From IMG/VR virus record IMGVR_UViG_3300017528_000042, positions 1-38,097 of that record: a DNA stretch of 38,097 nt. One strand, written 5' to 3'. Positions 3,596-37,405 of the stretch are shown piece by piece. The first letter of the stretch is position 1; each line of letters opens with the position of its first letter. A program made the position numbers and the translations under genes. This DNA comes from a virus. The notes under the pieces were generated by a model. That model worked only from the letters and a program-made list of their open reading frames with translations. It made no database searches and was not told the origin of the DNA.

Positions 3596-4147
3596 CTACC
3601 CTACAGTCTTTGCCACGACCACACAGGCCACGATCTGCTTCTGCCCACCGGGGCTATTCACCGTGATCTGCTGCGCCAGTGTCCCTGCCGGACAACCGAG
3701 AGGCGCAGGTGGTGCCGCAGGGCCAGGCGGTCCTTGCGGTCCCTGCCTGCCTCGCGGTCCGCGCGGTCCTGTCGCTCCTGTATCACCCTTGTCACCCTTT
3801 GGCCCACGGAATCCTCTCGGCCCTCGCGGTCCGGCAGGCCCAGTAGCACCGACATCACCCTTGTCACCTTTCTCGCCCTGCTTGCCAGTGGCACCAGTGA
3901 TACCAATTCCGGTCGGTCCTGCGGGTCCTACAGGACCAGCCGGTCCCTGAGCACCACCGGGAGTGCCGGGAGTGCCTTGAGGTCCCTGTTCGCCCTTCGG
4001 CCCTGTGTGTCCACGGGGACCACGCTCTCCCTGCGGTCCACGCGGCCCAGGAGGGCCAGGCTTGCCATGCCAGTCAGGCGGCACCGCGAAGACTGGTGAG
4101 GCCATCACCAGTGCGGTAGCAGCCACCGCTACTATTGTCGTTTTCAT
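3596..4147 (-). CDS. Secreted collagen-like protein
   Basis: The start is ATG 4147, which overlaps the polymerase stop as ATGA. The N-terminus is a classical signal peptide (MKTT, hydrophobic core, cleavage after MASPVFA near residue 21). It is followed by about 110 residues of nearly unbroken Gly-X-Y triplets rich in Pro, Lys and Glu (GPR, GDK, GPQ types). The C-terminal 40 residues lack triplets and contain two Cys (in LGCPAG and IVACVV), possibly a trimerisation or disulfide cap. Gly-X-Y repeats form a collagen triple helix, but the role here is unknown. A secreted product placed between DNA polymerase and RecA is odd: it might alter the host surface or be a moron gene. There is no promoter of its own; translation looks coupled to the polymerase. 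Confidence 0.85.
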
Positions 4148-7100
4148 GCAATCTCCCATTCTTGCTCTTCAGCAACCTCGAACACGTCAGCCATGTCAGT
4201 GACAACAATCTGATTGCGATCGTCTTTGTATCCGGCGATGAAGAACAGTGCTGAGTTAGCGATCAGATCCTTGAACTGCGCGTACATCTTCGGAAAGACC
4301 GTGCAGGAGTATAGATTCGCCTCATAGGCAACATCGATGAAGGCCATCTCTTCCTTCGCCTTGGTGAGAATCACCTTCGTCGTGACTATCTCTCCGCCGA
4401 TCGTCACCTGAGACGCCGTACAACGCGGGCAGTGGCACCATGAACCGTGGTTCGGACCCTTGCGCTTGGGATGCTTGGGCAGATCTTCAACCTCTGCCTC
4501 AGTATGAATACGCTTGTCGATATACGGCTTGAACTTGAGGAGGTACGCACTCTGGGTCAGCGACACATTGAGCGCAGCCAACTCCATCGCATTCAGTTCG
4601 GCCATCGACGGAGTGCTGACGATCGCAGGCTCGTCGCCGTTCTGGTGTTCCTTGATCCAGCGTGCCACTGGATATGTGTCACCAAGCCTGTCGATCTTGT
4701 CCGGCTCGGCATCAGGGTGGTGCGGACATTTCAGATCGTTGATCGCATCCTCGACCATCGCCTCAAGATCATCGTCAGGGTCCTTGGCTTTGATCGTGCG
4801 CGACTTGAGATGTCCACAAGTCATCTTGACCTTCACCTTGGCTACGTTCTCTCCCCACTGGCGTGTGTGGCTGAGCAAGAACTCACGGTCGTCAGTCTCA
4901 TCGAACGCGCCAGCCTGAGTCAATGCGACAAGCTTGTCGGCACCGAAGCCTGATGGGACTTTCTCTACGAAATCTCGATAGTCCTCGTAGGGCCGGTTAT
5001 CGAGGACATGATTGATAAGGCCCGCTCCCATTCCTGTGATGCTGACGAGGCCGTAGCGCAGACGGTCACCGTCGATTCCCCAGCCAAGATCGCTTCTATT
5101 GACATCAGGTCCCACAGCATCGATGTCGAAGAACCTTGCCTCTCGCAAAGTATTCTTGTAGAAATCCTGTTGCTCCTTCTTCTTCGCCTTATGCTCGGTC
5201 GTCAGGATTGATGCATACATGGCAAGCGGGTAGTGAACCTTCAGCCACATGTCCTGATACGCCTGCAAACCGTACGATTCGCTATGGCTGCGGTTGAACC
5301 CGTACCCACCCCACTCAAGGATGTAGCCCCAGATCTCGTTGGCGACATCATCCTTGATGTAGTTCTCGCGGCAGCCCTGCATCCACTGGTCGTAGAACTG
5401 CGCCATCTCGGCCTGCGCTTCCTCCTTGCCGAGACGGTAAAGCTTACTGACAGATTTGCGCATGTAGTCTGCCTGAGCGCCGGTGAACTTGCCGAGCACC
5501 TTGCAGATCTCCATGACCTGTTCCTGAAATGCGATCAGACCAAGCGTTTCTGACAGCACTGATTCGAGAGCATCATGCCAGAAGGTGACCTTTGAGGGGT
5601 CATTGCGACGATCGATGAACTCAGACAGCAGCTTGATCGAGCCAGGACGATATACAGCATTGACGACAGCTAGATCAACTGCGTTACGAGCCTTGTAGGC
5701 ACGAAGGAACTGCGTGATACCGCGCCCTGCAAACTGGAACACTCCGACGCTCAGCCCCGCAACGAAGGCATCCATCGTCTTGCCGTCCACGTCGTAGGGA
5801 TCACGCAGAGCCGGGAGATCGTTCGGCTCCACTTTCTCGCCGTAGTGCTTCTGAATCAGATCGACAGCGTAATCCTGCTTGTCGAGACTCTTGACACCAA
5901 GCATGTCCCACTTGAGAAAGCCGTAGTTGCTCAGGATCGGAAACTCGATGCGGTCCGACCACGCTGTGACGATCGTCTCCTCGTCTGAGCCAGCCTGCGT
6001 CGGGATGTACCAGTTCGTCGGCCGAGGAGTAATGACGACGCCACCAGCATGCTTCGTGTCGCGGAGAATCTGCCCTTCCAGGCGAGTCATATCCTGCCAG
6101 GCAGCCGGAAAGTCGCGCTTGAGCTTATTGACATCATCATTGTCAGAAGCAATTTTGTCGAGGCCACGCTCAAGATCACCGATGCTGTCGGTCGCCGCAT
6201 TGAGGCGAACGTAGTCGATCTCGTAGACGGCACCGATCTCCTTGATCGTGACACGCGGAGCGAAAGTCTGGTAGGCGATGATGTCAGCTACGTGGTCGTG
6301 GCCGTAGACGACGCGCAGATATTCCTTGACCAGATCGCGGCCATTCGAGGCGAAGTCAATATCGATGTCAGGGTAGCCCTCACGATCCGGATTCATGAAG
6401 CGCTCGAACAGCAGCTTGTGCGGGATCGGATCGATACTGGTGATCCCGATCAGGTAGGAGATCAGACAGCCCGCCGCGCTACCCCTCCCCAGACCCACCC
6501 TGATCGGCTTCTTGAACTCACCGGGTACGTAGTACAGCGATCCGTCCGGCATCTTCGTCGGCAGCGGCAGGTCACTCTTGGCCCAGCGCACGAAGTCACC
6601 GGTGATGTAAAAGTAGTCGAGAACATTCTTGTCTTCGAGCACACCGTACTCATAGTCCATGCGCTCGGTGTACGTGTCAATACTCCACTGATCCCAGTGG
6701 CTACGAGGATACTGCTCGATGATCTTTGCCCAGCCCTCTTTCATCCATTGCTTGACTTGAGCAGCAGCATCGACATCGACCTTCGGCGGCTTCGCAGTCT
6801 TGCCAACTACGTACCAGCGGACCTGCCGCGCAAACGCATGTGTGTTGGCAAGCGCTTCATCGACCACATATCCGGGGAGATCCGGATGATTGTCGCGGAA
6901 CATTTGCGACAGTTCCTTGGCCGACGACAGGTAGATCGAGTCAATCTCCTCGGTGTAGACATCCTCGCCCATTTCCTTCTTCGCCTCGCGCTTGGTGAAC
7001 GTCTGCTTGTAGCTCGCCATTCGCAGTACTGCTTGCGTGCCGCTCCACTTCTTGTAGGGCACATGCACATCGCCGGTGACCATCAGCGGTGTGGACGTTT

Positions 7101-7743
7101 CCTGGCTGAGATTAGCTAGCGCAATGTTGACAGTACGCTGCTGTTCGAGATCGTGCGGCATGACCTCCAGCCACAGCCGATCACCGACGAGATCCTTCAT
7201 GTCGAAGATCCAGTCGAACGCACCCTCGATGTCGTCCTTCAAGATCAGTTGCGACAGCGGACTGGCGAGGCATGCGGTGGAAACAATGATGTCCTCATTG
7301 TCATCCTCCAACATCGCTAGATCCATGCAGGGCTTGCCGTAGAAGCCGCCACCGTTATCACGCTTGACCCACGATTTGCTCGATAGCCGCATGAGCGTAC
7401 GCCATCCGCGCAGAGAGGCGGCGTGCAGGCACAGATGGTTAGCCCAGGTGTGGTCACACTCCATGAAGCGATCGGGCCTCCAAAATGCCTCAATTCCCAG
7501 GATTGGGATGAGACGTTCGTCAGCACTACGCTTTTCGCCGGATACAAGAGGGTTGTCAAGCTTCTCGGGGTGTCGGCAGGCATAGACGTGCTCCAGCGCT
7601 CCTCCGAGCCGTCCGTGGTTGGTGAAGCCTAGATGTGTCTGACCCTTACGGACGGCCTGGTGAGACAGTTGATTGCGTGTCCCTGCACCATCAAGCGGGG
7701 AGTACTCGTCATGACAGTGAAAGTGTCCGGCGAAGTCAACCAT
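4144..7743 (-). CDS. dnaE: DNA polymerase III alpha subunit (DnaE-type)
   Basis: This is a C-family replicative polymerase of about 1199 residues. It opens with a PHP domain ([13 protein letters not shown] near residues 7-19). The usual TDHG motif reads TNHG, so one metal ligand may be lost. The palm carries GLGRGSAAG (near 421) and the catalytic PDIDIDFA (near 460), with a third Asp in WDMLG. The C-terminal part has Cys/His clusters (TCGH...CPHH and CHCPRC) that may bind zinc. No DnaQ-type exonuclease domain is visible. ATG 7743 is chosen over 7764 because it places the PHP motif at the usual distance from the start and overlaps the previous stop by only a few bases. It copies the phage genome, perhaps with host clamp proteins. 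Confidence 0.93.
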
Positions 7744-7924
7744 GTGTAATAGTTCCGTCGGCATCTATTGTCAGTACTACTTTATCACCATCACGGATGA
7801 TTACTTGCTTGGTTTCATACGCTTCCGAGGTGGAGTAGATGCCGTACTCACAGTCTTGAGGCAAAGCCATCGGAACCTCAATGCGAATGCGTCGTCCAGA
7901 AGTGTTTCGGAGGAAGCTAGGCAT
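7736..7924 (-). CDS. Small hypothetical protein (62 aa)
   Basis: The start is taken as ATG 7924, two bases after the previous stop; a reading from 7954 would overlap that gene. The short protein has alternating hydrophobic and charged residues (RRIRIEVPM, KQVIIRDGDKVVLTIDADG), consistent with a small beta-rich fold. The stop overlaps the polymerase start. No family recognised. Confidence 0.6.
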   Translation of the reverse strand: MPSFLRNTSGRRIRIEVPMALPQDCEYGIYSTSEAYETKQVIIRDGDKVVLTIDADGTITHG

Positions 7925-9010: not shown

Positions 9011-9910
9011 TCAACTGGAACGCCGACGCCTGATGGTCTTGCCGGTGCTCTTACCGGCCTCTCGCTTGGCCTTCACACTGGCAAGGCCATTGCTCTTGCT
9101 GCGGCTGCTGGACCGGCGACGGCGCGGCTTGTCATCGTCGTCATCGTCGTCGTCATCGCGGGAAGCCTTCCTGGCGGAACCCTTGCTGCCACGCTCTCCG
9201 AACGCAGAGCCACGGCGCTTCGAGCGCTCCCCGACATCCTTGTCATCATCGTTGTCACGATCCGGCAACTCGTAGAAGTCATCGAAATCGGGCACGGTGG
9301 TGTAGCGATCGAGATCGATTTCCGACGCCTCAATGAGCGCCAGATCTTCCTTCGTCATCGGGTTGTCCTCTTCGTCAACCCACTCAACACTGTAGTCAGT
9401 GTCCCAGCCAGTCCCTTCGCGCTCGATCTCAATGTCGCGCAGAGACAGGTCGCGCTTCTTGTGCTTCTTGTTCAGCGCGCCGACAAGCCTCTTGCCAGAG
9501 GACAGGATCTTGACCTGATCCTCGTAGCCGATCACCTTGTCGCTGTCGTTGGTCTTCTCGGCCTCGCGCTCAATGACGCGACACCAGAACTTGTACCGGC
9601 GATCCAGATCGTCACGGCAGCCGGGACACGGCGTACCGTCATCGTTCTGGTCAAGGCACATGACATCGCGGGTAAAGGTCTTCTTGCTCTTGCCCCTACC
9701 CTCGAACTCCACGGGGTGAACAAACCCATCGCGGAAGTCATTACCAACATCGATGACACGAACCACAGTGGATTCGCCATCGGGGACCTTCACCCATTCG
9801 GGTGCGCTGAATCGCTTTGCCGAGCGCTTGATGTTCTCATCAACGTTGCCGAGCGATCGCCCGTTCTTCGCTGCACTACTGCTCCTGCGTGTTCGCCTGC
9901 TAACTGCCAT
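9011..9910 (-). CDS. Single-stranded DNA-binding protein, T4 gp32-like type
   Basis: The 299-residue protein opens with a basic tail. It then has a domain with a Cys cluster (Cys85, Cys95, Cys98, Cys110; CPGC and RRYKFWC), and an acidic C-terminal stretch with an Asp run followed by a basic tail. A Cys/His zinc site in the DNA-binding core, aromatic residues around it and acidic C-terminal parts recall T4 gp32 and similar phage ssDNA-binding proteins. It lies between the primase and polymerase genes, as expected for a replisome member. The start ATG 9910 has AGGAGG 6 bases upstream and a candidate promoter at 9994-10002. The basic end after the acidic run is unusual for gp32. Confidence 0.72.
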   Translation of the reverse strand: MAVSRRTRRSSSAAKNGRSLGNVDENIKRSAKRFSAPEWVKVPDGESTVVRVIDVGNDFRDGFVHPVEFEGRGKSKKTFTRDVMCLDQNDDGTPCPGCRDDLDRRYKFWCRVIEREAEKTNDSDKVIGYEDQVKILSSGKRLVGALNKKHKKRDLSLRDIEIEREGTGWDTDYSVEWVDEEDNPMTKEDLALIEASEIDLDRYTTVPDFDDFYELPDRDNDDDKDVGERSKRRGSAFGERGSKGSARKASRDDDDDDDDDKPRRRRSSSRSKSNGLASVKAKREAGKSTGKTIRRRRSS

Positions 9911-9993: not shown

Positions 9994-10002
9994 ATCATAC
10001 CA
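9994..10002 (-). promoter_or_regulatory. Extended -10 promoter candidate for the SSB gene
   Basis: The minus strand reads TGGTATGAT, an extended -10 (TGnTATnAT type) overlapping the primase stop codon. No clear -35 is seen, which extended -10 promoters can tolerate. The predicted leader of about 80 bases contains short repeats (AAAGCGACC, AGAGCGACC) and ends in CAGGAGGGAAGC before the ATG at 9910. Confidence 0.4.
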
Positions 10003-11155
10003 CAGATCGCCAAGGTGGTTTCGCGTCGCCGATCAGGTGCCGAACCCGCTCGCGCTCGCCTCTACAGAGGTAGTCGTTGGGGTCGTAGCGGTGCCTGCCG
10101 ACGACGCGAGTACGGATGAACGGCTCTAGCATCTCGACCGCGCCAGGGTGGTGCTCGCCGTCTTGCCTGTCGATGCCGTAAAGGAAGTTGCGGCCCGCCG
10201 TATCGTCATCGAAGAACAGTACAACCTCGTCGCAGTATTGCCGGATCAACCGAGACTGGATCATGCTCATGCTCGATCCACCCGTGCAGATCGCAGGGAT
10301 GTTCATGACCCACAGGCTCATCACGTCGATCTCGCCCTCGACCATGACGTAGCGGTCTACCTCACCCCACATGTCAAGTCCGAAGACAACTTTGCTCTTG
10401 TCATAGGGCTTGAAACCGTAACCGCGTAACCGCCGCTTGTCCCCCAGGATCAGGTACTTCGGGCGTACGTCTGGTTCCCACGCGCGTCCCTTGAAGCCGA
10501 CCAGATTGCGATCTGGGTCCATGACAGGAATAGTGATGCGGCGGGAATCAATGTCGTAGCCGATCCCCCATTCCTCAAGCATCGCTGGTGTGAAGCCTCT
10601 GTCAAGCATGTAGCTGACATCTGGTTGATCGCCAAGAGTCTCAGCATAGTGCCCCCAGTCCACGTCAAACCGCTTCCAGGCATCCGCAGCGATCGGCTGC
10701 ACTGTTGTCTCTTCTGGCGGTTGCTGAGCGAGCTTGCGGCGCTCCTCAAACTCCTTCGCGATGCTACCGAAGCGCGGCGCTCTGTACCCAGGCGCGTATT
10801 GGTTCCTGAGCCATAGCTGTGCCTGCTGGCGCGAGACGTTCTCATGCTCGCTCACGAAACCAATCGCGTTGCCCGAGCGCCCACAGCCGTGACACTTCCA
10901 CAGTGTTGTCTGCTCAGGGTTGCGCGAGCCATCGTTCATGTACGCGCTCGGACGCTCATCGCCGTGCGTATGCCCGGAGAACGGACAGGAGAACAGAACC
11001 TCATCAACGGTCGCCTGACTGATGTTCGCCACATCGAAGTTCTCAAGCAGATCAACAACATTGACATCCTTCAGCCAGGTTACGCGGTTACGCTTTCGCC
11101 GCCCCTTTTCGCCGCGCTCCAGCCGAGCTACACGTTCACTGAGCGAGCGAGGCAT
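9995..11155 (-). CDS. DNA primase (DnaG-like: zinc finger plus TOPRIM)
   Basis: The 386-residue primase has an N-terminal zinc-binding motif of CHC2 type (Cys57, His62 or His64, Cys88, Cys91 in WKCHGCG). The middle matches a DnaG-type core (SYMLDRGFTPAMLEEWGIG, RRITIPVMD). The TOPRIM domain has VMVEGEID (near residue 270) and the metal-binding FFDDDTAG. It makes RNA primers for lagging-strand synthesis, probably with the DnaB-type helicase in the same block. ATG 11155 is preferred over GTG 11167 because GGAGG lies 5 bases before it. It is short relative to bacterial DnaG because no separate helicase-binding domain is evident. Confidence 0.9.
   Translation of the reverse strand: MPRSLSERVARLERGEKGRRKRNRVTWLKDVNVVDLLENFDVANISQATVDEVLFSCPFSGHTHGDERPSAYMNDGSRNPEQTTLWKCHGCGRSGNAIGFVSEHENVSRQQAQLWLRNQYAPGYRAPRFGSIAKEFEERRKLAQQPPEETTVQPIAADAWKRFDVDWGHYAETLGDQPDVSYMLDRGFTPAMLEEWGIGYDIDSRRITIPVMDPDRNLVGFKGRAWEPDVRPKYLILGDKRRLRGYGFKPYDKSKVVFGLDMWGEVDRYVMVEGEIDVMSLWVMNIPAICTGGSSMSMIQSRLIRQYCDEVVLFFDDDTAGRNFLYGIDRQDGEHHPGAVEMLEPFIRTRVVGRHRYDPNDYLCRGERERVRHLIGDAKPPWRSVV
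10417..10431 (-). repeat. Dispersed GGTTACGCGGTTACG motif
   Basis: Exact 15-base copy on the minus strand inside the primase gene. The motif is two direct GGTTACG units separated by one C. Confidence 0.6.
11078..11092 (+). repeat. Dispersed GGTTACGCGGTTACG motif
   Basis: Exact 15-base copy on the plus strand near the 5' end of the primase gene, opposite in orientation to the copy at 10417. Confidence 0.6.
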
Positions 11156-11505
11156 CGCTTCCTCCACGCGAGTAGACCCTGCTCGCGGCGTGTGCGCACA
11201 TGCACACCAGCCTTGCGCAGACGGTACATGACCGTCGATGTCGCGATACCGAGCGTCTGACCAACCTCGTGCGCCGACATATCCATGTTCACGTATAAGA
11301 ACATAGTCTTGTCAAACTCCGAAGTCGGTAGGCGAGGACCACCTCCTCCGGCAGCACCAGGGCGTCGCAACGGGATGCCTTGAATCTGCAAGCGGTTTCT
11401 GATGGCTGTCGGTGAGACATGCGCCAGTCTTGACACTTCATTGAGAGAGAACCCTTCAAGGTAAAGCCGCGTCGTGAGTTCCCAGGACACCTCATCCCTT
11501 CTCAC
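11128..11505 (-). CDS. Double helix-turn-helix protein
   Basis: The 125-residue protein contains two HTH units: one near residues 14-48 (EGFSLNEVSRLAHVS, then RNRLQIQGIP), and one near 72-104 (DMSAHEVGQTLGIATS, then MYRLRKAGVHVR). They resemble resolvase or sigma-type HTHs that read DNA in tandem. A Gly-rich linker (AAGGGG) joins them, and the C-terminus is basic. No catalytic domain is present, so it is likely a regulator or site-binding factor. GTG 11505 is chosen because GGGAGGAGATCG lies just before it. It overlaps the NADAR gene by 14 bases and the primase start by 28. Confidence 0.75.
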   Translation of the reverse strand: MRRDEVSWELTTRLYLEGFSLNEVSRLAHVSPTAIRNRLQIQGIPLRRPGAAGGGGPRLPTSEFDKTMFLYVNMDMSAHEVGQTLGIATSTVMYRLRKAGVHVRTRREQGLLAWRKRCLARSVNV

Positions 11506-11947
11506 CGATCTCCTCCCGCAATTTCATCCAGATCTGTCCGAGGTAGTTGTCGCCAGTCTTGTAGCAGCGAAGGCAAGTACAGTTGCCCCAGAAATTGTCG
11601 TGCCACCAGTTCTGCTCAACGAGGTTCGCATCGCCCGTGGAGATCAGCGCCATCGCGATCTCGGGATGGTCATCGATCTTGCGCTGGACCAGATAGTGCA
11701 TCGCAGCAATCTTTGCGTCATCCCAGAGTTTCAACTCTTCTGGCGAGAGCTTCCAGCGCCGTCCGAGCTTCTTCGCGTGCCCTGGCTTCGAGCGCAGGAT
11801 CGTTGCGTATCGCCACGGGTATGCGCTGTGCTTCGCCGCCTGGAACTCAGCCTCGACGTTCGTGCCATCCGGCTCCACGTAGAAGTTCGACAGCCAGTTG
11901 TGAACAAGCTTGCCGCCTTCGCTCTTGACGAACCACGTATCGGTCAT
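11492..11947 (-). CDS. NADAR-family protein (YbiA-like)
   Basis: The 151-residue protein has the NADAR family signature: LSNFY near residue 19, the Glu-containing EAEFQAAKH near 32-40, GRRWKL and WDDAKI in the middle, HPEIAMALISTGDANLVE, then WWHDNFWGNC and NYLGQIWMKLRE. Family members act on NAD/ADP-ribose-type N-glycosidic bonds. E. coli YbiA acts on riboflavin pathway intermediates, and some NADAR proteins remove ADP-ribose from guanine in DNA. A Cys pair (CTCLRC) sits before the last motif. ATG 11947 is chosen because it fits the family's length and forms an ATGA overlap with the preceding small gene; the frame is open further upstream. A phage copy could counter ADP-ribosylation or NAD-based defence; that is inference. 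Confidence 0.85.
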   Translation of the reverse strand: MTDTWFVKSEGGKLVHNWLSNFYVEPDGTNVEAEFQAAKHSAYPWRYATILRSKPGHAKKLGRRWKLSPEELKLWDDAKIAAMHYLVQRKIDDHPEIAMALISTGDANLVEQNWWHDNFWGNCTCLRCYKTGDNYLGQIWMKLREEIGEKG

Positions 11948-12147
11948 GTTCGGTATGATACCAGCAGCGGGCAGGGGACCGGAGTAGCTAACTCCGATCC
12001 CCCATTGCGCGCTATCCGGCTCGGTTCCCATCCGAGCATCAGCGGTCGAAGCATGGGCTGCCGTTCCGGCCATTCAACGCGGGTGCCGTATAGGTCGCCG
12101 CGCACCACAGGATCCTGCCTTCGCCGGTGATATTTGTCAAGATTCAT
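11944..12147 (-). CDS. Small hypothetical protein (67 aa) upstream of NADAR
   Basis: The start ATG 12147 has AGGA 6 bases upstream and lies just inside the end of the wHTH gene. The stop overlaps the NADAR start as ATGA. The product starts with a basic stretch (MNLDKYHRRR) and contains many Pro and Arg residues; no fold is recognised. The coupling on both ends is the main reason to accept it. If rejected, the 190 bases before the NADAR start would be an unexplained gap. Confidence 0.5.
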   Translation of the reverse strand: MNLDKYHRRRQDPVVRGDLYGTRVEWPERQPMLRPLMLGWEPSRIARNGGSELATPVPCPLLVSYRT

Positions 12148-12652
12148 GACCATTCCTGTACCTGGCTGTCCACGGGATCACCCGTCCTCTGGGGCGTGAA
12201 CAGCCAGTAGCCAGCAACAGTATTATGGCAGTGCGACCCTCTCTACCAATTCCGTTTACAATCGAAGGATCATTAGAACCATCATTGTAGTCGCGATCTC
12301 CCGTGTCATAGATGAAACCAACTTCTCGCAATTCACTCGATCGCCGTCGCGCATCATCGATATGACTAGGAGGAGCATCAACAGGCAAGACAGCAAGAGC
12401 CGCCTGCTGATCTGTTCCATTATGATTGGCATACCAAAACAGCACCTTGGCTTTACGCGCACTAATAGTGAATCGTCCAACATCCTTTTCATTCTTTTCA
12501 GCAATATGGCTGGTTTCAGGATCAGTCTCGCGAGCGGGAGCCGAGGCAACGCGCTTGGTCGGCTTCAAGTAGGCCAATCGATTCGTCACCTTGGGATGAC
12601 CATAAGTGAAAATCAGCATTTTCAGAGCAGTGTCAAGACGCTGACTTGCCAT
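12137..12652 (-). CDS. Winged-helix protein next to DnaB
   Basis: ATG 12652 overlaps the helicase stop as TAATG. The middle (residues about 40-120) looks like a winged-helix domain often seen in actinophage proteins: RETDPETSHIAEK, then DVGRFTISARKAKVLFWY, a helix with QQAALAVL, and RRRSSELREVGFIYDTGDRD as recognition helix and wing. The C-terminal 50 residues have no recognised fold. It may be a helicase loader or an origin-binding accessory because of its position, but only the DNA-binding fold is supported. Confidence 0.7.
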   Translation of the reverse strand: MASQRLDTALKMLIFTYGHPKVTNRLAYLKPTKRVASAPARETDPETSHIAEKNEKDVGRFTISARKAKVLFWYANHNGTDQQAALAVLPVDAPPSHIDDARRRSSELREVGFIYDTGDRDYNDGSNDPSIVNGIGREGRTAIILLLATGCSRPRGRVIPWTARYRNGHES

Positions 12653-13932
12653 TACTCATGTCCGTTCCTGTGGCGAACCGACCACGGGTTCGTCTTCGGC
12701 TTTTCTGGCTCGCCGCCGAGCTTACGTGTAGCAGGAGTACTGCCGCCCTTGATCTCCTCGATCTGCATTGTCTCCAGTTCCCAGCGCATGATCGCCGTCT
12801 TGCGTGAGGGACCATCACGATACTTGCGCAGGTACAGCGTCATCTTGTCCTGATCTTCCTCGTCATCCTCTGGAGGCAGCAGGATGATGAGCATGTCGGC
12901 GATCTTCTGCGCGCTCTGGTAGCTCGTCTCGCCCTCGCGGTTCAACTGTGTTGCAGTGACGTACGGCGTCTTCGTGATGCGCGCCTGCTGTTTCAGCCCG
13001 CGTCCGTTCTCCGCCACGCCCTCCCAGCCCTGCACCTTGCGCGGCGTGCGCATCTCCTCCAGATAGTCCACGCAGACCATTCCGGGCTTGTGACGAATCT
13101 GCTCGGCAGCGATCTTCTCGACCGTGCAGTTGCGAATGTCATCAATTATGATGATGTCCTTGTCCATGCGATCCTTCTCGCACTGGCGCAAGACGCGGTG
13201 CCATTCCTTCTCCTCGCCCTGGTTCAGATCGAGCGCCTTGAGCGCGCGGTAGCGAATGTGCGTCAACATTGTGTCGAACTTCCGGAGGATCTGCTCGCCC
13301 TCAACCTCCAGAGAGACGAACACGACCGTGTGACCAGCCAGGTAGGCGTTGATCGCCGTGTACTGGATGCCAGTAGTTTTGCCGCCACCCGGAGGACCGC
13401 CCCAGATCATGATCTCATGCGGCTGAAGACCAAGAGTAATGTTGTCAAACGACGGGATTCCGATCTTGATCCCGTGCTGGATCTGCTTCTTCTTCCTGCG
13501 CTCGTATTCCTCGCGCCGCGCCTTCCCCTCTGAGAGCCGCTGTGCCTTCGGGGTTGGGATGACCATTGTCAGACGGTGCGCCATCTCCAGCGCGTGATGC
13601 TCGATGTTCTCGATCTCGTCAGGATCATCAAGCATGTCATGGTAATCGCGCACCAGTTCGACGGCCTCGCGCTCTTTGACCTTGAGCACGAAGCGCTCCA
13701 GCAAGTACGACAGCGGATCTTGTGTCAATACTGGTTTGAAGTCACTGAACTCTCCGCGTGTAACCGGAACAGACGGCGGCGTCTTGTGCTTGGACATGAA
13801 ATCCGTGGCCCACTCGTACAGATCGGCCAGGTCTTCATCGGCGAAATGGTCCGGCTCGATCCCACGCGCTACCACATCAGCGAGATCACCGGACTGCAAC
13901 GCTTTTGAGAGAAGAATTCTCTCAATATCCAT
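12652..13932 (-). CDS. dnaB: DnaB-type replicative helicase
   Basis: The 426-residue protein has a short N-terminal helical domain and a RecA-fold ATPase. Walker A is GPPGGGKTT near residue 181, Walker B is MVCVDYLEEM, and VTATQLNRE matches the DnaB H3 motif. It unwinds the phage DNA ahead of the DnaE-type polymerase and should work with the primase at 9995-11155. The N-terminal domain is shorter than in bacterial DnaB. The C-terminus adds a Pro/Lys-rich tail (EPEKPKTNP). The start is ATG 13932, a few bases after the previous stop. Confidence 0.92.
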   Translation of the reverse strand: MDIERILLSKALQSGDLADVVARGIEPDHFADEDLADLYEWATDFMSKHKTPPSVPVTRGEFSDFKPVLTQDPLSYLLERFVLKVKEREAVELVRDYHDMLDDPDEIENIEHHALEMAHRLTMVIPTPKAQRLSEGKARREEYERRKKKQIQHGIKIGIPSFDNITLGLQPHEIMIWGGPPGGGKTTGIQYTAINAYLAGHTVVFVSLEVEGEQILRKFDTMLTHIRYRALKALDLNQGEEKEWHRVLRQCEKDRMDKDIIIIDDIRNCTVEKIAAEQIRHKPGMVCVDYLEEMRTPRKVQGWEGVAENGRGLKQQARITKTPYVTATQLNREGETSYQSAQKIADMLIILLPPEDDEEDQDKMTLYLRKYRDGPSRKTAIMRWELETMQIEEIKGGSTPATRKLGGEPEKPKTNPWSVRHRNGHE

Positions 13933-17837: not shown

Positions 17838-18716
17838 TTACGTAACACAGATGGCAAATACGAGCACCTGCCATACCGTTCCTGCCGGTAGCTGTGTTCC
17901 GTCGAGTGTTACCTGCCAGCCGGTGAAGCCGATCGGGCCTGAATGCGTCAGGACGATTCTGGGGTCCTGTGGGACGGTGATGAAGCCGCCGCCGGTGATC
18001 TTCCCGGCCGAGCAAGTTGCGATCGGCTGCTTGATTGTTGTCGCATCGTTCGCGCTACCGACGACGAACGTTGCTGTGTTCGGCGGAGTAGCAGCAGCAC
18101 CAGGGGGTCCAGTCGCTCCGGTAGCCCCCGTTGCACCAGTTGCGCCCTTGGCACCCGTAGCTCCCTTCGCGCCGGTATCGCCCTTCTCACCGGTAGCACC
18201 CTTGTCACCAGTAGCACCCTTCTGACCAGCAGGTCCAGCCGGACCAGCGGGGCCGGGAGTTCCCTCGCCTCCGGTGCCAGGGATTCCAGCAAGACCTTGC
18301 TGTCCCTGAGCACCCTGCGGGCCTTGGGGGCCGGTTTCACCCTTCGGGCCTTGAGCGCCCTGCTCACCAGGCGCACCGCCACCACCAGGCAGGCCAGGAG
18401 TACCATCAACACCGTTGCTGCCAGGCACGCCGGGAATGCCCTGTTCACCCTTCATATAGGCGACGGTCTGATCGCTCTGCTTCTTCGCTGAATCAGCAGT
18501 CTTGTTGGCTACCTTGGCAATGTCGTCAGTCTGTTCGAGGTTCGTGCTTGCGTTCTCGATCGCCAGCCAAAGCGCAATACCCGTCAACATTGCCAACAGA
18601 CCGATCGCCAGCCACGTCGCCAGCAAACGGGTACGAGAGTAGTGCAGGGTCGCCTTGCCCTGCTTTCCGATTTCTTCAAGAATCCTGTCAGAAGGATCTT
18701 GGGTTGGTTCAGTCAT
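17838..18716 (-). CDS. Membrane-anchored collagen-like protein
   Basis: The 292-residue protein has a cytoplasmic N-terminus of about 30 residues, one membrane helix (residues about 31-53), a coiled-coil-like linker ([15 protein letters not shown]), then about 120 residues of Gly-X-Y triplets. The C-terminal 80 residues form a separate domain starting near NTATFVVGS and ending VLVFAICVT, with Cys residues and Gly-rich GGGF. A domain of this kind is common at the end of bacterial secreted collagen-like proteins. The topology predicts a collagen stalk outside the cell. The start overlaps the small membrane gene by 8 bases. It might be a virion fibre or a host surface protein; the membrane helix argues for the latter. 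Confidence 0.82.
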
Positions 18717-21638: not shown

Positions 21639-22550
21639 CTACATGATGGTGTGGTGGTGGTACATGATGAACTGCGACGTACCACTCGTCATACCTGAAG
21701 CAATGAAGTGAATATTGTTCTTCCCAGGTTCAAGCTCCAGCCAGTCTGAGTTCACATCGAGGTACTGAAAGCGATTCGCCTTATCGCTTTCGCGGTACAT
21801 CCGCCTGTCTCCAATCATGATGTTCCAGCGCTCACCTGTTGGAATCGGTGCCGTGAGCGCGATTCTGTCGCCGTTCGTCTCGTTGATTATCTGCACTGAT
21901 GACATCGGCCCGTAGAGTTGGATCTCGGGCTGTGCCTGGAAGTTGCCTTCGTTGAGCGGAGTGAACACAATGGCGTCAAAAGTCGCCGCTGTGAACATTC
22001 TGTTGCTGTATTCCTTGGCCACGCTGAGGAAACGCGGGTTGCCAGCCCGCAGCATGACTTGAAACGGTCGCTCGAAGTGATTGGGGGTTCGCTGCTCGTC
22101 CGCCATCTGAATCGACTGTGACTTCTTCGCGTAAATCATCATGTCAAGTTCAGGATTGTTGGCACGGAAGATCAGCGGCAACTCATTGTCAAGCTGCGCA
22201 AATGCCTGCCTGAGTCCCTGCTGCATGTCACGCAGCTTGAAGATCGTCTTCGAGTAGATCTTGCCTGTGAGCACGATCGAGCGGCCACCGTAGTAGCTCG
22301 GGAAGGCTGTCTCGCCGTGGTAACCAGGGTTCGCTTCGCGGTTGTCGCGCACATCCGCATCATCCAGCCCGCCAATACTCGTGACAAGATACGTGTCCAC
22401 CCAATCACGAATGTTCAGGTAAAGACCGTTGTACTCGATCACGGACTCGATACCGCGCGGACCCGAATTGCCAGTACCAGGCAGACCTTCGTTCGGATCG
22501 CCGGTGCCTAGGCTGATCGGCGGAGTGATGAATGAAGCAATGTTGCGCAT
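21639..22550 (-). CDS. Distal tail (Dit-like) or minor tail protein
   Basis: The 303-residue protein lies between the fibre genes and the hub-like gene. Its sequence has YNGLYLNIRDWVDTYLV near the start, GRSIVLTGKIYSKTIFKLRDM typical of the tail-ring fold, FERPFQVMLRAGNPRF, and a C-terminal stretch (WLELEPGKNNIHFIASG) like the galectin-like domain of Dit proteins. It should form the ring at the tail tip. The start ATG 22550 lies two bases after the previous stop; the ribosome binding site is weak. Confidence 0.72.
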   Translation of the reverse strand: MRNIASFITPPISLGTGDPNEGLPGTGNSGPRGIESVIEYNGLYLNIRDWVDTYLVTSIGGLDDADVRDNREANPGYHGETAFPSYYGGRSIVLTGKIYSKTIFKLRDMQQGLRQAFAQLDNELPLIFRANNPELDMMIYAKKSQSIQMADEQRTPNHFERPFQVMLRAGNPRFLSVAKEYSNRMFTAATFDAIVFTPLNEGNFQAQPEIQLYGPMSSVQIINETNGDRIALTAPIPTGERWNIMIGDRRMYRESDKANRFQYLDVNSDWLELEPGKNNIHFIASGMTSGTSQFIMYHHHTIM

Positions 22551-24083: not shown

Positions 24084-27000
24084 TCACTGTGCTGTCTTGC
24101 TTGCGAATGTGACGGCTCCTGCAACTTCGGTCAGATCGATCGGACGGCCAGCCTCGTAGAGATTGATCGTTGTGTCGCTACTGCTGCTGTTGGACGAGTT
24201 GGTGACAGCAACCGACGGGCTACCGAGGCCAGTGCTCGTCATCATAGCCGGATCGTACTGCGGAAGCACCGTGCCCATGCCTGAGAAGATCGCCTCGCGG
24301 AACATCGACCATGCGCTGCTGCTAAAGCCCTGTGGCTGGGTCAGCGCACCGGTTGCATCGTTGAGTGCAACAGTGTTCGTCTTCTGCGCAACAGTATTCT
24401 CAAGAGTCGCCTTGTAGAGATCCTGATACTGCTGCGTCCCCGGAGCGGCTTCCGCCAACAGTGCTGCAAGCTCTTGACCCTTCTGCTCAAGGTCAAGCCC
24501 CTTCGCTGTAAGCAGCCTTACTTTCTCTGCCTGGTCAACCTGGCCGGTGATCTGTCCATTCAGATCGTTGATTTGCAAAAGCAGATCGTCAATCGACTGA
24601 GTGTAGTCGTGCCTCTGAGTGACATCCTGAACCCTCGCATCGAACGCCGCCTTGGTATTCTCAGCAATAGTGACATCAAGCTCTTCGATCTGATCGGTCA
24701 AATCTTGGATCATCTTCGTGTTGAAGACACGTTCGCCCGTAAGCGGATTGATCGCTCCTGCCTGAGCCGTACCAAGAGCGCCGACAAGACCAGCACGCTG
24801 CGTCTGGAAGTTCTCAGCACGTTGAGTAAAGATCCCACCACGCGAGAACGTCCCGCCACCGAACAGCGTCGCCGCCCCTCCGAGGCCGACTGTTCCCATC
24901 GCATCGAGCAGGCGACCGGCAAGATCAAGGCGTCCAGAGGTACGTTGTGCAGCAGTGTTGATGGCGTCAATACCATCCTGAAGCGACTGCTGAGCCAACT
25001 CGAAGACCTGCACGCGCAGATCCTTGACCTGATCCTCAAGCTGGTCTGCAAGCTTGTTGGCATCCTCTGTGCCAACTGCGCGGATAGAAGCAATGCGTCC
25101 TTCAAGCTCGTTTGCCTGGCCGGTGAGCAATTCGGTTTGCCGTGCGTTGACGGCAGCCATGCTGCCACCGATCGCCGTAGAGACTCGGCGAGCAAGCTCA
25201 TTGAGGTTTGTTTGACGATCGTAGCGAGCCGTGATTCCGTCAACAATCTTCTGTTGCAGATCCATCTGCGCCTGGATGAACGCTTGCTGCGCTTCGTAGA
25301 GCGCCTGAAGATTGTCACCAACGCGCTGATCGGCTTCCTGGCCCATCTCGCGGAGCGTCTGTAGCTCGCCGCGTAGACGCTGCCTGACCTCCGGAGAGAC
25401 GCCACCACGCTTTAGCTGTGACAACACTCGTTTCTGTGCTTGCCTGATATCGCGCTGCTCCGCTTGCAGATCGCGACGCTCCGTCCGCACATCGGTTACA
25501 TCTTCGCCTGCGGTTCGCACTGCGACTCGGGCTTGGCGCTCTGCGGTAGCGCGCAGATTCGCCCTGCCGGTAGTAGCACGCTCAACTGTTCGGTGCAGAG
25601 TACGGATTGCAGTACTACGTTCGATTCCTTCCCGCAGCTTGGCGAACAAGCCTTGATCGCCAAGAAGGTTGTCCATCGTGTCGGCGAAAGTGAGCAGCGC
25701 CTTCTCAGCGTCAGTAGACTTGGTTTTGCGGTTGACGGAGCGAGTAACCCTGTCCAGCCTGACGATCGTGGCGCTGATGTTGGCGAGCGAGCCGCCTACA
25801 GAAACCCAATGACTTCCCAACTCGTCAAGGTGCTTCTGCGTCTTCAGCAGTACAGCCAGGAGCTTCGCAAGACCCTTGTCAGAAAGCTTCTTGAGATCCT
25901 GAAGTGTGACGTTAGCGATAGCAGTAGGATCAGCAGCAGTAGTGGCATCCTTGCCAGTGACCTCAGTACCGCCTGCCGCACCACCGGGTCCGCCGTAGAA
26001 GCCCATCATCGAGCGCAGCGCATCACGGCTGACACCCATCATGTGCGCTACGCGATTGACCTGACCCTCGTTCAGAATCCACTCACGGGCATGCGCCATG
26101 ATCGGCACAGCCTTGCCCAGAGGACCAGGGACAATGCCACCCTCGGCAAAGTGTCCGCCGAACCGCGCTAGTGCTGCACGCGCCGGTCCATAACGATCGC
26201 CCTGGATACCGAAGCGCTCGTACCCGAGGCCGACTGCATCGACAGCAGCTTCAAGACCCTTGGCACCCCTGATGCGCGAGTTGGCCGCGCTCTCAGGTCC
26301 AGACAACTCGTGGATGACGAAGGCAAGCTGTGCGCCCAGATCAGTCCACGGCTTCCCGTGCTGTCCAGCGAACGCCACCAGCGCTCGGAAACGACCATCG
26401 CCCCACTGCGCGAGGCCACGGCCAGGACCACCGGCCTGCACGGCATTCGGGCGCAGATTTGACTCCTGCGTGAAGTTGCCAACCCACGCTGCGGCCTGCT
26501 CATCGGAGAATCCGTGCGACTTGAAGAACTGGAAGATCGGTCCTGCACCAGCGGCGACATTACTGACATCGACATCCTGTCCGGAGCCTGCACCGAACGC
26601 AGATGATGCAGCACTAATGGCACTGTTTGCGGCACCTGTCACCTTGTCAAAGAGATTCTGAATCATCTCCTTCATCGGAGACTCAGGACCCTTGACAATC
26701 AGACGTGCGATGTTACCGCCGATAGCAGTGGCAAAATCGCCAACATCGCTGATGCCGGGGAGGTGCATCTGCTTGAACCCGGCCAAGTAACCCGGACCGG
26801 GAGCGTGAGTGAACCAGCCAGCACCAGTCCAGCCCGGATGGCCGAAGCCGGTCGTACCGAAGTAGCGGCTCCCGATCCGCATGAACGTGTGCGTCGGGTT
26901 GTAGAAGATCGTCGCGCCACCGGGGCCACTCGGGAAGCCCCACGATCCCATGCTGCCAGAAGTGGTTGTCGGGACCTTGTAACCTGCCTGCTGAGTAACA

Positions 27001-30000
27001 TAGGAGACAGATCCCGAACAGTCCATGCCGTGACCGATCTGCGCAGGCTGCTGATGTCCGCCGCCCCACACATACGGCAGATGCTTGGCATTGACAGCAT
27101 TAGCGGCAGCGATCAGACGGCTGAGATGTGTGTCACCGCTCTCACCAGAACGACCACCGGATGCCATACCGGGCTGCTCAGGGCCACCCGCGTGATAGGC
27201 ATGGGTCCGTCCGAACATGTCATCGAGGCCGAAGCCCCAGTAGGCACGCATCGCCGGTTCGACGTATGCCTGATGACTCCAGTTCAAAACTGCTTCACCA
27301 GCGCCCAGTGCGTAAAGACCCTTGTCTCTACCGCGCTGACCCTTACCGCCGATGAAGCCGCCCTCGGCCTTCCCTGTAGCGGGAGGAGCGGTGAGGCCGA
27401 AGTTGATGGTCTTGGCACCGAATCCGTGCAGCGCTCGATTGGCTTCGTGACCGATGTAGTTGAGGCCGTCGTACGTGATCTTCATCATCGAAGTCCACGT
27501 ATCCGACCAGTTGTCTACCAGCGACTTGCTACGGACCCTGAAAGACTGTTGAATATCTTGCAGTGAGCTACGCACTGCGCGGTACATCGCGTCCGTCGAG
27601 CGCGAGGTCTTGACCCGCATGTCGCGGAACTGTTCCTCGATCGCATTCGTACCACGCCGAGCAGCATTGACAAGCAACTGCCAGAAGGCTCGCCAGGCAG
27701 ATGAGAAGTCGTCAAGCTGTCCACCCTTGAAATCGATCTCAAGACGGCCTGCACCGGCACCGGGAGCGCCGCCATCAGCCATCCTGCGCCCGTAGCTCTG
27801 TCCACCGCCACCAAAGCGCGAGCGCATGGCGAACATCGCCGCATGTCCACCAGCAGCCGCAACCTCACCCTTCGTCCAGACGTGCTCTCCCGGCTCCAGC
27901 AGCGCATGAATCCTGTCGCCACAACCACTGCCAGGAACCGGGCCACCAGTAGCGAGGTGCGGAAGCGGATTCCTAGGCAGCTTGATGTCAGGAGCGCCCG
28001 GAATAGGAATCTTGTCGGGCAGCAGATCATTCAGGAAATCGATGAAGACGTTGGCAATACTCTTTGATTCCTTGAATGCAGCACTAATGCCATCAACGAA
28101 TCCCTTGGCTGCCTTCGATCCCAAATCCTCAAACGCATGAACTATGCGAGTTTCGCCGCGAATGATTCGATCGCGTAGATCTCCAAGGAAATCACCGATA
28201 TCACCAATGGCATCCTTGAGCGCATTGATGAACCCACGCCAGCCTGCTCTAGCTAGATGCCTGAGCGCATTGATGAGTATGCGCTCGCCACGAACAATCC
28301 GCGTAGCTATGTCTCTAAGGAAATCACCGATAGCATCGATGTTCTCCTTGAGGCCATCGATGAACCGGTTCCAGCCACGCTTGGCAAGATTGGCGAAAGC
28401 TCTAGCGACGATTACAGCAGCCCTGCCGATAAGCGGGCCAAGGCGCTTGAGTATTTCCCAAACGATTTCAAGGAAGCCACGGAATCCTGCTGTCACAGCG
28501 CGGAAGGCTCCACGGAAGATATCCTTGAATCCATCAAGAATCTTGTCAGTATCACCGGTGAGAATTCCGGTAAGGATCTCGACAAAGCCCTTGATGACAT
28601 CGATGGCACCGCCGAGAATGCGACCGATCGTGCGCCCGAAGACTCTGAGGAAGACAGCACTGATGTCGATGATGATCTTCAGGATCGGTCGCAACAGTGC
28701 GAAAGCGCCTTGGCCCCGCTCAAACGCCTTCCAAAGCTCCATGACCGAATCGACAAGACCCTCGACCGACGGCTTGATCTCCTTCCACGCCGCATCAAAT
28801 CCGCCCTTTACCGCCGCCCATGCATCATCGAGCAGCCCGAGCTTGTCCAGCAGCAAGACGACGGCTACACCAATAGCAGCAATGAGTACAACCCAGCCAA
28901 CTGCTGCGAGCAACGAGCCTTCCATAGCTACGCCGAGAACATTGAAGGCTATCTCAAATTCCTTCGCCCAAGTGACAGCTTGCTTTAGCGCCTTTCCGGC
29001 ATCGAAGAGCGTCTGTCCGAGTTTGAATATCGGTCCGATAACACTATTGCCAATCTTGCTGAGGATCAGCATCGATGCAACGAACTTGAGGAAATCGCCG
29101 CCAAACTTCGTGTTGGCAAACTTCAGAAGTGTCTCAGTGATATGCCCTAGGAACCTGACAGCATTCCCCAGCGCGGGGATGAGAGTGTCCGTCAGCAACT
29201 TGGCGAAAGCATCAACACGCTTGGCATCAAATGCCTTGAACAGTTCCTTGCCTAGCGCGACGAGAACATTGACGACTTGATAGGTGATATGACGCGCTTC
29301 CTCAAAGAACTTGCCGACCTTGCCTCTGTTCTCATCAACCTTCTTTGTTAGATCGTCAATAGCCTTGGTAGCATCCTGAACGCTCTTGAGGCCGGATGAC
29401 GCACCACCGGCACCAGTCAGCGCCATGAACAGACGCAGGACGGAGATGCCCAGCTTGACCCACGCCTCGAAGTGCTTCTCGCCTTCGAGGAAGAAGTCCG
29501 TCATGGCCTTCTTGCGGCCAGTCAGTTTGAGGAAGTCGTCGGCTAGATCGCCAACGAAACCGAGCAACTTGCTGAGCGCCGGTCCAGCCTCTTCAGCAAT
29601 GTTAGCGAGAGCCTTGCCAACACTAATGGCGATATCTGCTACAGGCTTGAGATTCTTGCGGCCAGCTTCAGCGATACGGAGGAACTGTGCGATCATCTTG
29701 TCGCTTGTGAAAGCGTCAAAGACTCGATTCAGTTGCTCCGACATCGTTGTCGCGAGCTTCCGCGCGCCGCTGATCAACTGCGGCATCTGGATGATTTCAA
29801 TCAGCCGCCTGGCAGCGCGTGTAAAGCTGCCAAGAATGATGTCGGTGATCGGCCCGAAGACTTCCTTGTAGACCTTTTGCAGATCCATCAAGGCGCGGAA
29901 CAGCTTGCGCTGGCCCTCCGTCATCTGTGACAACAGGAAGTTCAGCTTTTGCGCCGCTGACTGCGTACCAGTCTGTGCCTCGTCAGCAGTACGCTTGGCG

Positions 30001-36340: not shown

Positions 36341-37405
36341 TTACGGGATCCGCACGTCGGCGTAGAGGAATGCCTCGGGGCGCTTCATCCGCACGATGCG
36401 GCGTGACGCCTGCCGAAGCAGCCTGGTGTAGACACCCTCGCCCTTGAGGATGATCTCGGACTGAGGACCGGACAGGAACACCGTGTCGCTGGGGCCGGAC
36501 TTGATCTCCACCGGCCCGTTCAGAGTCTCAGCAATGCTGACACCCTCGACCGTGTAGTCAGTGGTGATGAGGAGGTTCCCCACCGGCAGATAGCGAGTGT
36601 GGTCCTGCGGGCGCTTCGACGCACCGACAGACTCCTGTCGGAAAGCACCGTTGCACGGCACGAACTGTGTGCCGGGCGGCAGGAGCTTGAGCACGTCTTC
36701 CAGCGTCGGCATGAACGGCTGCCCCACAGGCACGTTGAAGTACGTGCGGAGCTTCTGGTTCGACGTGATGAGCAGTGAATCGTCATCACTGATGTGGATC
36801 TTGCGGCCCGGAGCGCCAGCATCATTGCTGACCTGCTTGAGCCACACCTTCAGGTCGTTGACCGGATCACTGTTGGTGAGATCAGTCCACGACACTGCCG
36901 TCGTCGGCTTGTGCCCGCTCGGAAGCGGGTAGTCGATGACAAGAGCGGTGTCACGAAGCTGATACTCGATCGTGAGTTGTCCGGAGAACGCGGCCCACCG
37001 CATCCATTCGGTAAGGCGCTCGTTGCGACGTTCGAGGATCTGACCGATCTCGACCAGCCTGCGCGCTTCCCTTCCGGCAAGCTTCTCGCCACCCTGCGTC
37101 AGAACTTCCCAACGCCGAGGACTGATGCGATGTGCCTCGTCCAGATAGGCAAGCTCGATGACCGTCTCGCGCTCCTCGCGACCCGTGATGTCCATCAGGG
37201 GGATTGAGGCTTCCGGCGCACGGAACTGACCGATGCCGGTGGCGTGGAGGTCTTCGACGCGCATGCTGACATACTGCGAGTCGGTGTCCTGCATCGGCGC
37301 GATCTGCTCGCCGACGAAAGGAGCCGTCTCCATCTCGGTTTCGACCGGACCAACAATAGCGTCAGTCAGTGCGGCCTGATCCATGATGTCGTCAATAACT
37401 GCCAT
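36341..37405 (-). CDS. Major capsid protein, lambda gpE-like family
   Basis: The 354-residue protein matches the gpE-type capsid family: an N-terminal arm, MDITGREERETVIELAYLDEAHRI (region only near residues 70-95), WMRWAAFSGQLTIEY, and the C-terminal GVYTRLLRQASRRIVRMKRPEAFLYADVRIP (region near 325-354). It forms the icosahedral shell. The gene follows a decoration-protein gene, as in lambda, though there the order is D then E. ATG 37405 has GGAGGAGGTGAAGACAC upstream, fitting strong expression. Confidence 0.9.
   Translation of the reverse strand: MAVIDDIMDQAALTDAIVGPVETEMETAPFVGEQIAPMQDTDSQYVSMRVEDLHATGIGQFRAPEASIPLMDITGREERETVIELAYLDEAHRISPRRWEVLTQGGEKLAGREARRLVEIGQILERRNERLTEWMRWAAFSGQLTIEYQLRDTALVIDYPLPSGHKPTTAVSWTDLTNSDPVNDLKVWLKQVSNDAGAPGRKIHISDDDSLLITSNQKLRTYFNVPVGQPFMPTLEDVLKLLPPGTQFVPCNGAFRQESVGASKRPQDHTRYLPVGNLLITTDYTVEGVSIAETLNGPVEIKSGPSDTVFLSGPQSEIILKGEGVYTRLLRQASRRIVRMKRPEAFLYADVRIP

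What the first reader, a model, noticed from the sequence alone, without database searches (positions are those of the whole stretch)
11492..11947. NADAR-family protein inside the replication gene chain
A YbiA/NADAR-type protein is rarely expected beside primase, helicase and SSB genes. Some NADAR proteins reverse guanine ADP-ribosylation or accompany NAD-related toxin systems, so a phage copy could counter such a defence. Whether this one acts on DNA, nucleotides or riboflavin intermediates cannot be told from sequence.
Basis: partly seen in the sequence, partly recalled or inferred. Interest (0 to 1): 0.6.

Follow-up and report, generated by a model that had tools for sequence, protein, structure and literature searches.

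The report
Phage ADP-ribose-removing enzyme among replication genes
An uncultivated bacterial virus, and all five related viruses whose DNA covers the same spot, carry between two of their DNA-copying genes an enzyme of a family that strips ADP-ribose tags from DNA bases, probably to undo a bacterial defence that poisons viral DNA; the enzyme family and this kind of counter-defence are already known, but I found no description of this fixed place inside the copying machinery.

Summary
A 151-residue NADAR protein lies at 11492-11947 on the minus strand (Pfam PF08719, E 8.7e-16), with a confident YbiA/NADAR-type predicted fold and the core ADP-ribose-handling residues (E32, K39, W75, E111, D117, W120) intact. 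The window is a fragment of a novel siphovirus-like phage. Five related phages whose contigs cover the site all carry NADAR between the replicative helicase and the primase. A search with the DNA polymerase, blind to NADAR, returned all five. NADAR diverges about as fast as primase and forms one clade, while its immediate neighbours vary. So it is a fixed member of the replication operon, not passing cargo. Two of the five carry a SLOG-domain protein next to it (one match weak) and one a DUF4031 domain fused to it. The phage type usually tested (T4 gp30.3) is a different subfamily. Best explanation (0.5): a base-ADP-ribosyl hydrolase co-produced with the replisome that clears guanine-ADP-ribose from phage DNA; soluble ADP-ribose signals are the main rival. 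No substrate was tested. It is a new member of a known kind (phage orphan NADARs). A His/Cys motif, probably a metal site, marks one class of phage NADARs.

The parts
11492..11947 (-). NADAR protein, 151 aa; core residues E32, K39, W75, E111, D117, W120; H116 + C123/C125/C128 motif
   Evidence: PF08719 E 8.7e-16; phrog_1017 2.1e-26; AF2 pLDDT 90.1, 8bau Z 14.2; residue table
11944..12153 (-). 69-aa ORF of unknown function; its stop overlaps the NADAR start codon (ATGA)
   Evidence: ORF list, overlaps, no Pfam match; not confirmed as a gene
12137..12652 (-). orf171, unknown function; no match in the kin loci searched
   Evidence: phrog_18663 1.3e-6; no Pfam match; no hit in kin loci
12652..13932 (-). 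DnaB-type replicative helicase
   Evidence: PF03796 1.9e-25; phrog_19 1.2e-63; conserved upstream flank of NADAR in all kin
11128..11505 (-). HTH protein, 125 aa, overlapping NADAR by 14 b and primase by 40 b; no match in the kin loci searched
   Evidence: HTH families; overlaps; no hit in kin loci
9995..11167 (-). DNA primase (zinc ribbon + Toprim)
   Evidence: PF13155 5.5e-11; phrog_47 1.8e-54; conserved downstream flank of NADAR in all kin
9011..9910 (-). single-strand DNA-binding protein
   Evidence: phrog_14578 2.7e-10
4144..7764 (-). DnaE-like DNA polymerase of the same module
   Evidence: phrog_405 3.4e-228; used as the NADAR-blind query that found the kin

Best explanation
The gene encodes a catalytically competent NADAR (ADP-ribosyl-base N-glycohydrolase) made from the phage's own replication operon. 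It most likely removes ADP-ribose that host ADP-ribosyltransferase toxins (DarT1-like or other guanine-modifying ARTs) attach to guanines in single-stranded phage DNA, so that helicase, primase and polymerase are not blocked. SHOWN here by sequence: NADAR family and fold, intact core residues, fixed co-inherited position between helicase and primase in six lineages, overlapping genes. SHOWN in the literature for relatives: the NADARs tested hydrolyse guanine-ADP-ribose. INFERRED: that this protein is active, that DNA at the fork is its main substrate, and that the purpose is counter-defence.
For: Family and fold. Residues aligned to the ADP-ribose-contacting residues E43, K50, W89, E125, D130, W133 of P. 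nicotianae NADAR (PMC11543638; alignments) are identical in 37/37 sequences. Five of five kin phages whose contigs hold both DnaB and primase have NADAR between them, and the polymerase search that is blind to NADAR found all five. Kin NADARs form one group (94/82; 95% of bootstrap trees), at 40-66% identity against 41-80% for primase and 40-81% for DnaB, which points to vertical co-inheritance under constraint. Gene overlaps of 1-40 b fit one co-expressed operon. All four NADAR subtypes tested, a phage one included, cleave guanine-ADP-ribose in DNA (PMC11125620) and NADARs do so on RNA (PMC11833690). A phage orphan NADAR countering DarTG1 is reported (Johannesman et al. 2025, title in the reference list of PMC12548467; details from memory). 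The non-NADAR anti-DarT factor of T4 (gp61.2, Pfam AdfA) also lies close to a primase gene.
Against: The protein lacks the basic N-terminal extension proposed to bind DNA in DarT1-linked NADARs, and its net charge is about 0, pI 7.0 (PMC11543638). SLOG neighbours in two kin and the DUF4031 fusion point to ADP-ribose or nucleotide chemistry in general. T4 NADAR is active in vitro yet does not rescue DarT1 toxicity. The host is unknown, so the presence of a guanine ART in it could not be checked.
Confidence: 0.5

Rival explanations
1. The enzyme acts on low-molecular-weight ADP-ribose derivatives (cyclic ADP-ribose signals, ADP-ribose adducts) made by host NAD-dependent immune systems, together with SLOG-type partners; its place in the replication operon only gives early expression.
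For: A survey of viral NAD/ADP-ribose systems argues that phage NADAR, Macro and SLOG domains mainly target soluble ADP-ribose derivatives and occur together (PMC9503650). A YAcAr SLOG gene follows NADAR in kin E (E 5e-12) and a weak SLOG match (LDcluster4, 1.2e-3, below cut-off) precedes it in kin B. No basic DNA-binding extension and neutral charge.
Against: A diffusible-signal enzyme has no obvious reason to stay between helicase and primase in six lineages. No Macro or Nudix domain in the seven records searched. No YAcAr SLOG match in the window, which is only a fragment. Direct NADAR activity on soluble signals is not shown in the papers read.
Confidence: 0.25
2. A housekeeping or repair role in phage replication: removal of ADP-ribose or related adducts from DNA or RNA (primers, NAD-derived ends) arising without any host toxin.
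For: Fixed position in the replication module; E. coli carries a NADAR with dnaG/rpoD/rpsU, and the authors raise a role in replication itself (PMC11125620); NADARs act on guanosine in RNA (PMC11833690).
Against: No endogenous phage source of the modification is known; no DarT in the seven records; NADARs do not act on RNA phosphate-end ADP-ribose (PMC11833690).
Confidence: 0.15
3. A riboflavin-intermediate N-glycosidase, the classic YbiA annotation.
For: Best NCBIfam match is TIGR02464 riboflavin intermediates N-glycosidase (E 1.9e-14).
Against: The score of 54.2 bits is below that model's cut-off of 73.7; no GTP cyclohydrolase II in any of the seven records; no metabolic genes beside it.
Confidence: 0.04
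4. Antitoxin of a phage-borne toxin-antitoxin pair (DarT-NADAR or YarT-YbiA like).
For: NADARs are antitoxins of DarT1 and YarT (PMC11543638, PMC11125620).
Against: No DarT family match in the window or kin records; neighbours are replication, HTH or unknown genes that differ between kin while NADAR stays. YarT-like toxins were not searched for.
Confidence: 0.04

Closest known systems
E. coli YbiA and stand-alone PF08719 NADARs (2b3w; P. nicotianae 8bau)
   Same: Fold (Z 14-16), Glu at the class-defining position (E111), core ADP-ribose residues
   Different: One-residue insertion before D117; His/Cys motif absent from YbiA and its Cys absent from the matched part of 8bau; only 25-28% identity; phage replication operon context
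Phage orphan NADAR anti-DarT factor (Johannesman et al. 2025, Nat Commun 16:1598; title from a reference list, content from memory)
   Same: Phage-borne orphan NADAR without a toxin beside it
   Different: Sequences could not be compared here; described mainly in T4-like phages; here fixed between helicase and primase of an unrelated siphovirus-like phage
T4 gp30.3 phage NADAR (Pfam PF08010)
   Same: Same superfamily, phage-encoded
   Different: Separate Pfam family; histidine in place of the class-defining Glu (PMC11125620); the window protein has Glu and no PF08010 match
DarG1 (DarT1-linked NADAR, BC4488 type; G. lovleyi 8bat)
   Same: Distant fold match (Z 7.8-8.8)
   Different: Lacks the N-terminal extension; Glu instead of Asp; no DarT beside it
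T4 AdfA (gp61.2, anti-DarT factor A)
   Same: Lies close to the phage primase gene; counter-DarT role (PMC11481870)
   Different: Unrelated protein family PF23813, proposed to bind DarT rather than reverse the modification
E. coli sigma70-linked NADAR (dnaG-rpoD-rpsU operon)
   Same: NADAR linked to a primase gene (PMC11125620)
   Different: Chromosomal operon; not compared by sequence here

Membership tests
NADAR superfamily (PF08719) | Profile match above the curated cut-off | tested here: met
   59 bits against 35.1, E 8.7e-16
NADAR superfamily (PF08719) | YbiA-like alpha+beta fold | tested here: met
NADAR superfamily (PF08719) | ADP-ribose-contacting/catalytic residues | tested here: met
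   E32, K39, W75, E111, D117, W120 equivalent to E43, K50, W89, E125, D130, W133; the R79 and R93 equivalents (R63, K79) vary among relatives
NADAR superfamily (PF08719) | Guanine-ADP-ribose hydrolysis | not testable with these tools
   needs a purified-protein assay
YbiA-type subfamily | Glu at the last-strand catalytic position | tested here: met
   E111, invariant in 37/37; a one-residue gap lies between it and D117, so the match rests on sequence alignment
Phage gp30.3-type NADAR | His at that position; Pfam PF08010 | tested here: not met
   E111; no PF08010 match up to E 0.1, while T4 gp30.3 matches PF08010 at 4.6e-71
DarG1 (DarT1-linked, BC4488 type) | Asp at that position | tested here: not met
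   E111
DarG1 (DarT1-linked, BC4488 type) | N-terminal fold extension of two strands and a helix | tested here: not met
   model residue 1 aligns only from residue 52-53 of 8bat; the protein has no room for the extension
DarG1 (DarT1-linked, BC4488 type) | Adjacent DarT gene | tested here: not met
   no PF14487 match in the record
Riboflavin intermediates N-glycosidase (TIGR02464 equivalog) | Score above the curated cut-off | tested here: not met
   54.2 bits against 73.7
NADAR family anti-phage protein NF053876 | Score above the curated cut-off | tested here: not met
   49.2 bits against 240
Phage anti-DarT factor NADAR (AdfN) | Phage-encoded NADAR without a cognate toxin gene | tested here: met
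   no DarT in the window or kin
Phage anti-DarT factor NADAR (AdfN) | Removes DarT1-made ADP-ribose from phage DNA during infection | not testable with these tools
   needs infection of a DarTG1 host

The most novel reading that the evidence does not exclude
A NADAR that is a working part of a phage replisome: co-translated with helicase and primase and acting at the fork to strip ADP-ribose from template DNA or primers, in a lineage that has kept it in that slot while the genes around it changed. It would belong to a class of phage NADARs carrying a His-Cys3 metal site (H116, C123, C125, C128) not described for solved NADARs.
Probability: 0.2. Interest if true: 0.65.

Novelty: new member of a known kind. 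Interest (0 to 1): 0.4.

Why it matters
Phage NADARs are usually scattered accessory genes. A lineage in which NADAR is a fixed part of the replication operon suggests a lasting need to keep replicating phage DNA free of ADP-ribose, and so that guanine-ADP-ribosylating defences may be a persistent pressure in this host group. It also gives a clean test case: a small, single-domain, toxin-free NADAR of the Glu type, whose substrate (DNA base or soluble ADP-ribose compound) can be decided in one biochemical experiment, a point on which the published views differ.

Tried and rejected
DarT, Macro, Nudix and GTP cyclohydrolase II families: none in the seven records. PADLOC gave only a weak match, 1.1e-3. 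Rejected: the longer 193-aa start (the extra 42 aa are not clearly conserved); reading the near-invariance of NWWHDNFWG in alignment A1 as evidence, since that motif was a search pattern; filing the protein as gp30.3-type, DarG1 or riboflavin enzyme (membership tests). I expected T4 gp61.2 to be a NADAR; it is not, it is AdfA. The second model's second-look list lacked YbiA 2b3w, which is a limit of that list and not evidence against the fold. LeRoux 2022 and Johannesman 2025 were not held.

Full report
Observation. With 17 relatives as alignment AlphaFold2 gives pLDDT 90.1 and pTM 0.84. The model matches P. nicotianae NADAR bound to ADP-ribose (8bau) at Z 14.2 over 138 residues and G. lovleyi NADAR (8bat) at Z 7.8. 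The first, poorer model matched YbiA 2b3w at Z 16.2 and 8bau at Z 15.2, and Foldseek found those two alone with E below 0.001.

The window. The record is a 38,097-base virus contig. Every gene assigned here runs on the minus strand: capsid 36341-37405, tape measure 24084-31778, Dit 21639-22550, a DnaE-like polymerase, a UvsX-like recombinase, SSB, primase, DnaB, RNase H and an SF2 helicase. The phage is divergent: its DnaB has no match among 50,697 phage records and its polymerase at best about 31% identity. From DnaB to primase the genes overlap: DnaB to orf171 by 1 b, orf171 to orf69 by 17 b, orf69 to NADAR by 4 b (ATGA), NADAR to the HTH gene by 14 b, HTH gene to primase by 40 b. This is the look of one co-translated operon (inference).

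Kin phages. A primase search found IMGVR_UViG_3300041956_000050 (L031, kin A). Its polymerase is 70%, DnaB 68%, primase 59% and NADAR 60% identical to the window's, in the same order. A search with the two NADARs found kin B and C (L043, L049), with NADAR 47% and 45% identical in the same slot. Because those were found through NADAR, I searched with a four-row polymerase alignment, which is blind to NADAR. It returned A, B, C and two more, D (L056) and E (L050), plus L051/L052 and one distant record. All five records that hold both DnaB and primase have NADAR between them. The L051/L052 records lack both flanking genes and so do not test the point. The kin NADARs form one group in a 37-row tree (support 94/82; 95% of 200 bootstrap trees). 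Pairwise identities are 40-66% for NADAR, 41-80% for primase, 40-81% for DnaB and 45-80% for polymerase. The small gene trees agree on the C+D pair; the places of B and E are not firmly resolved. NADAR has therefore been inherited with the replication genes and kept under constraint.

What changes around it. In the window, orf171 and orf69 precede NADAR and an HTH gene follows; neither orf171 nor the HTH gene has a match in the kin loci searched. In kin A a DUF4031 domain (E 4.7e-15) lies in frame before NADAR in one open frame of 259 aa; whether it is made as a fusion or NADAR starts at a later ATG could not be told. In kin B a 195-aa protein with a weak SLOG match (1.2e-3, below cut-off) precedes it. 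In C and D an 82-84 aa protein without a Pfam match precedes it. In E a YAcAr SLOG protein (5e-12) lies between NADAR and primase. NADAR is the constant in a variable slot.

Elsewhere. 363 phage records hold a relative at E 1e-5 or better. In 17 annotated contexts I read, the neighbours are mostly hypothetical genes, now and then a DNA ligase, an RNase H two genes away, a DnaE-like fragment or a Rad50-like gene. In 22 other NADAR virus records, DnaB was found in 3 and Toprim_2 in 2. By the contig coordinates these lie about 12 kb or more from NADAR. Many of those records are short fragments. So helicase-NADAR-primase is special to this lineage, as far as this sample goes.

Residues. Aligned to the residues reported to contact ADP-ribose in P. 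nicotianae NADAR (PMC11543638), the window has E32 (E43), K39 (K50), R63 (R79), W75 (W89), K79 (R93), E111 (E125), D117 (D130) and W120 (W133). E32, K39, W75, E111, D117 and W120 are identical in 37 of 37 sequences; R63 and K79 vary. Eleven of the 37 rows came from a search in which NWWHDNFW was one of the patterns, so only the other 26 count as evidence at D117 and W120. The class-defining residue is Glu, as in the YbiA family, not Asp (DarT1-linked) or His (phage gp30.3 type) (PMC11125620). T4 gp30.3, the phage NADAR tested biochemically, is in another Pfam family (PF08010), so its failure to rescue DarT1 toxicity does not transfer directly.

His/Cys motif. Of 23 sequences with His before the conserved Asp (H116), 21 also read WG-x-C-x-C, usually followed by a third Cys or by His. 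Of 14 with Gly or Asn there, none has it. Without the pattern-fetched rows the counts are 11 of 12 against 0 of 14 (Fisher 1.6e-6; rows are related, so this overstates independence). I read this as a likely metal site (H116, C123, C125, C128) present in one class of phage NADARs and absent from YbiA; no coordinates or metal data were available.

Mechanism. The NADARs tested so far remove ADP-ribose from guanine in DNA (PMC11125620) and RNA (PMC11833690). DarT toxins modify phage DNA and block its replication (PMC11543638). A fixed, co-translated place between helicase and primase fits an enzyme that clears such modifications where single-stranded DNA is exposed. A phage orphan NADAR that neutralises DarTG1 has been published (Johannesman et al. 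2025, seen as reference 47 of PMC12548467; the text was not held and what it shows is from memory). T4's unrelated AdfA also sits close to the primase gene. Against this, survey authors argue that phage NADARs, often grouped with SLOG and Macro domains, act on soluble ADP-ribose derivatives (PMC9503650); the SLOG neighbours in kin E and perhaps B fit that view, and the window protein lacks the basic extension of DarT1-linked NADARs and is neutral. I put 0.5 on DNA-base de-ADP-ribosylation as counter-defence, 0.25 on soluble derivatives, 0.15 on a replication housekeeping role, and little on riboflavin (below the equivalog cut-off; no GTP cyclohydrolase II) or a phage-borne toxin-antitoxin pair (no DarT).

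Novelty. The family, the activity and the idea of phage counter-defence by NADAR are known. New here, as far as I could check, are the fixed place in the replication operon of a divergent siphovirus-like lineage and the His/Cys class marker. I file it as a new member of a known kind.

Noticed in passing
L022:9446-10291 and L026:9611-10417: Virus contigs encode fusions of a DUF488-N3a domain (E about 5e-10) with a NADAR domain; this may overlap with the rhodanese-phosphatase/DUF4326 fusions mentioned in PMC9503650, which was not tested.
   Followed up: partly
L031:9262-10038: In-frame DUF4031-NADAR open frame of 259 aa in kin A; no paper found that holds both DUF4031 and NADAR.
   Followed up: partly
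window 11128-11505, minus strand: HTH protein with what look like two HTH units; matches PADLOC model mad1 at 5.3e-8, probably only through the HTH, and several sigma/HTH families.
   Followed up: no
window 3596-4159 and 17838-18716, minus strand: Two collagen-like (Gly-X-Y repeat) proteins, the first beside the polymerase and recombinase rather than among the tail genes.
   Followed up: no
L049:9786-10031 and L056:3913-4164: Related 82-84 aa proteins between DnaB and NADAR in kin C and D, with no Pfam match.
   Followed up: no
L051 and L052: A further kin lineage (polymerase 51% identical) whose records hold neither primase, DnaB nor NADAR by search; a fuller genome would be one more test of the fixed slot.
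   Followed up: partly
phage records such as OP752703.1 and OQ680479.1: NADAR proteins annotated as 'GTP cyclohydrolase II' or 'swarming motility protein' in many phage records, names apparently carried over from COG3236.
   Followed up: no
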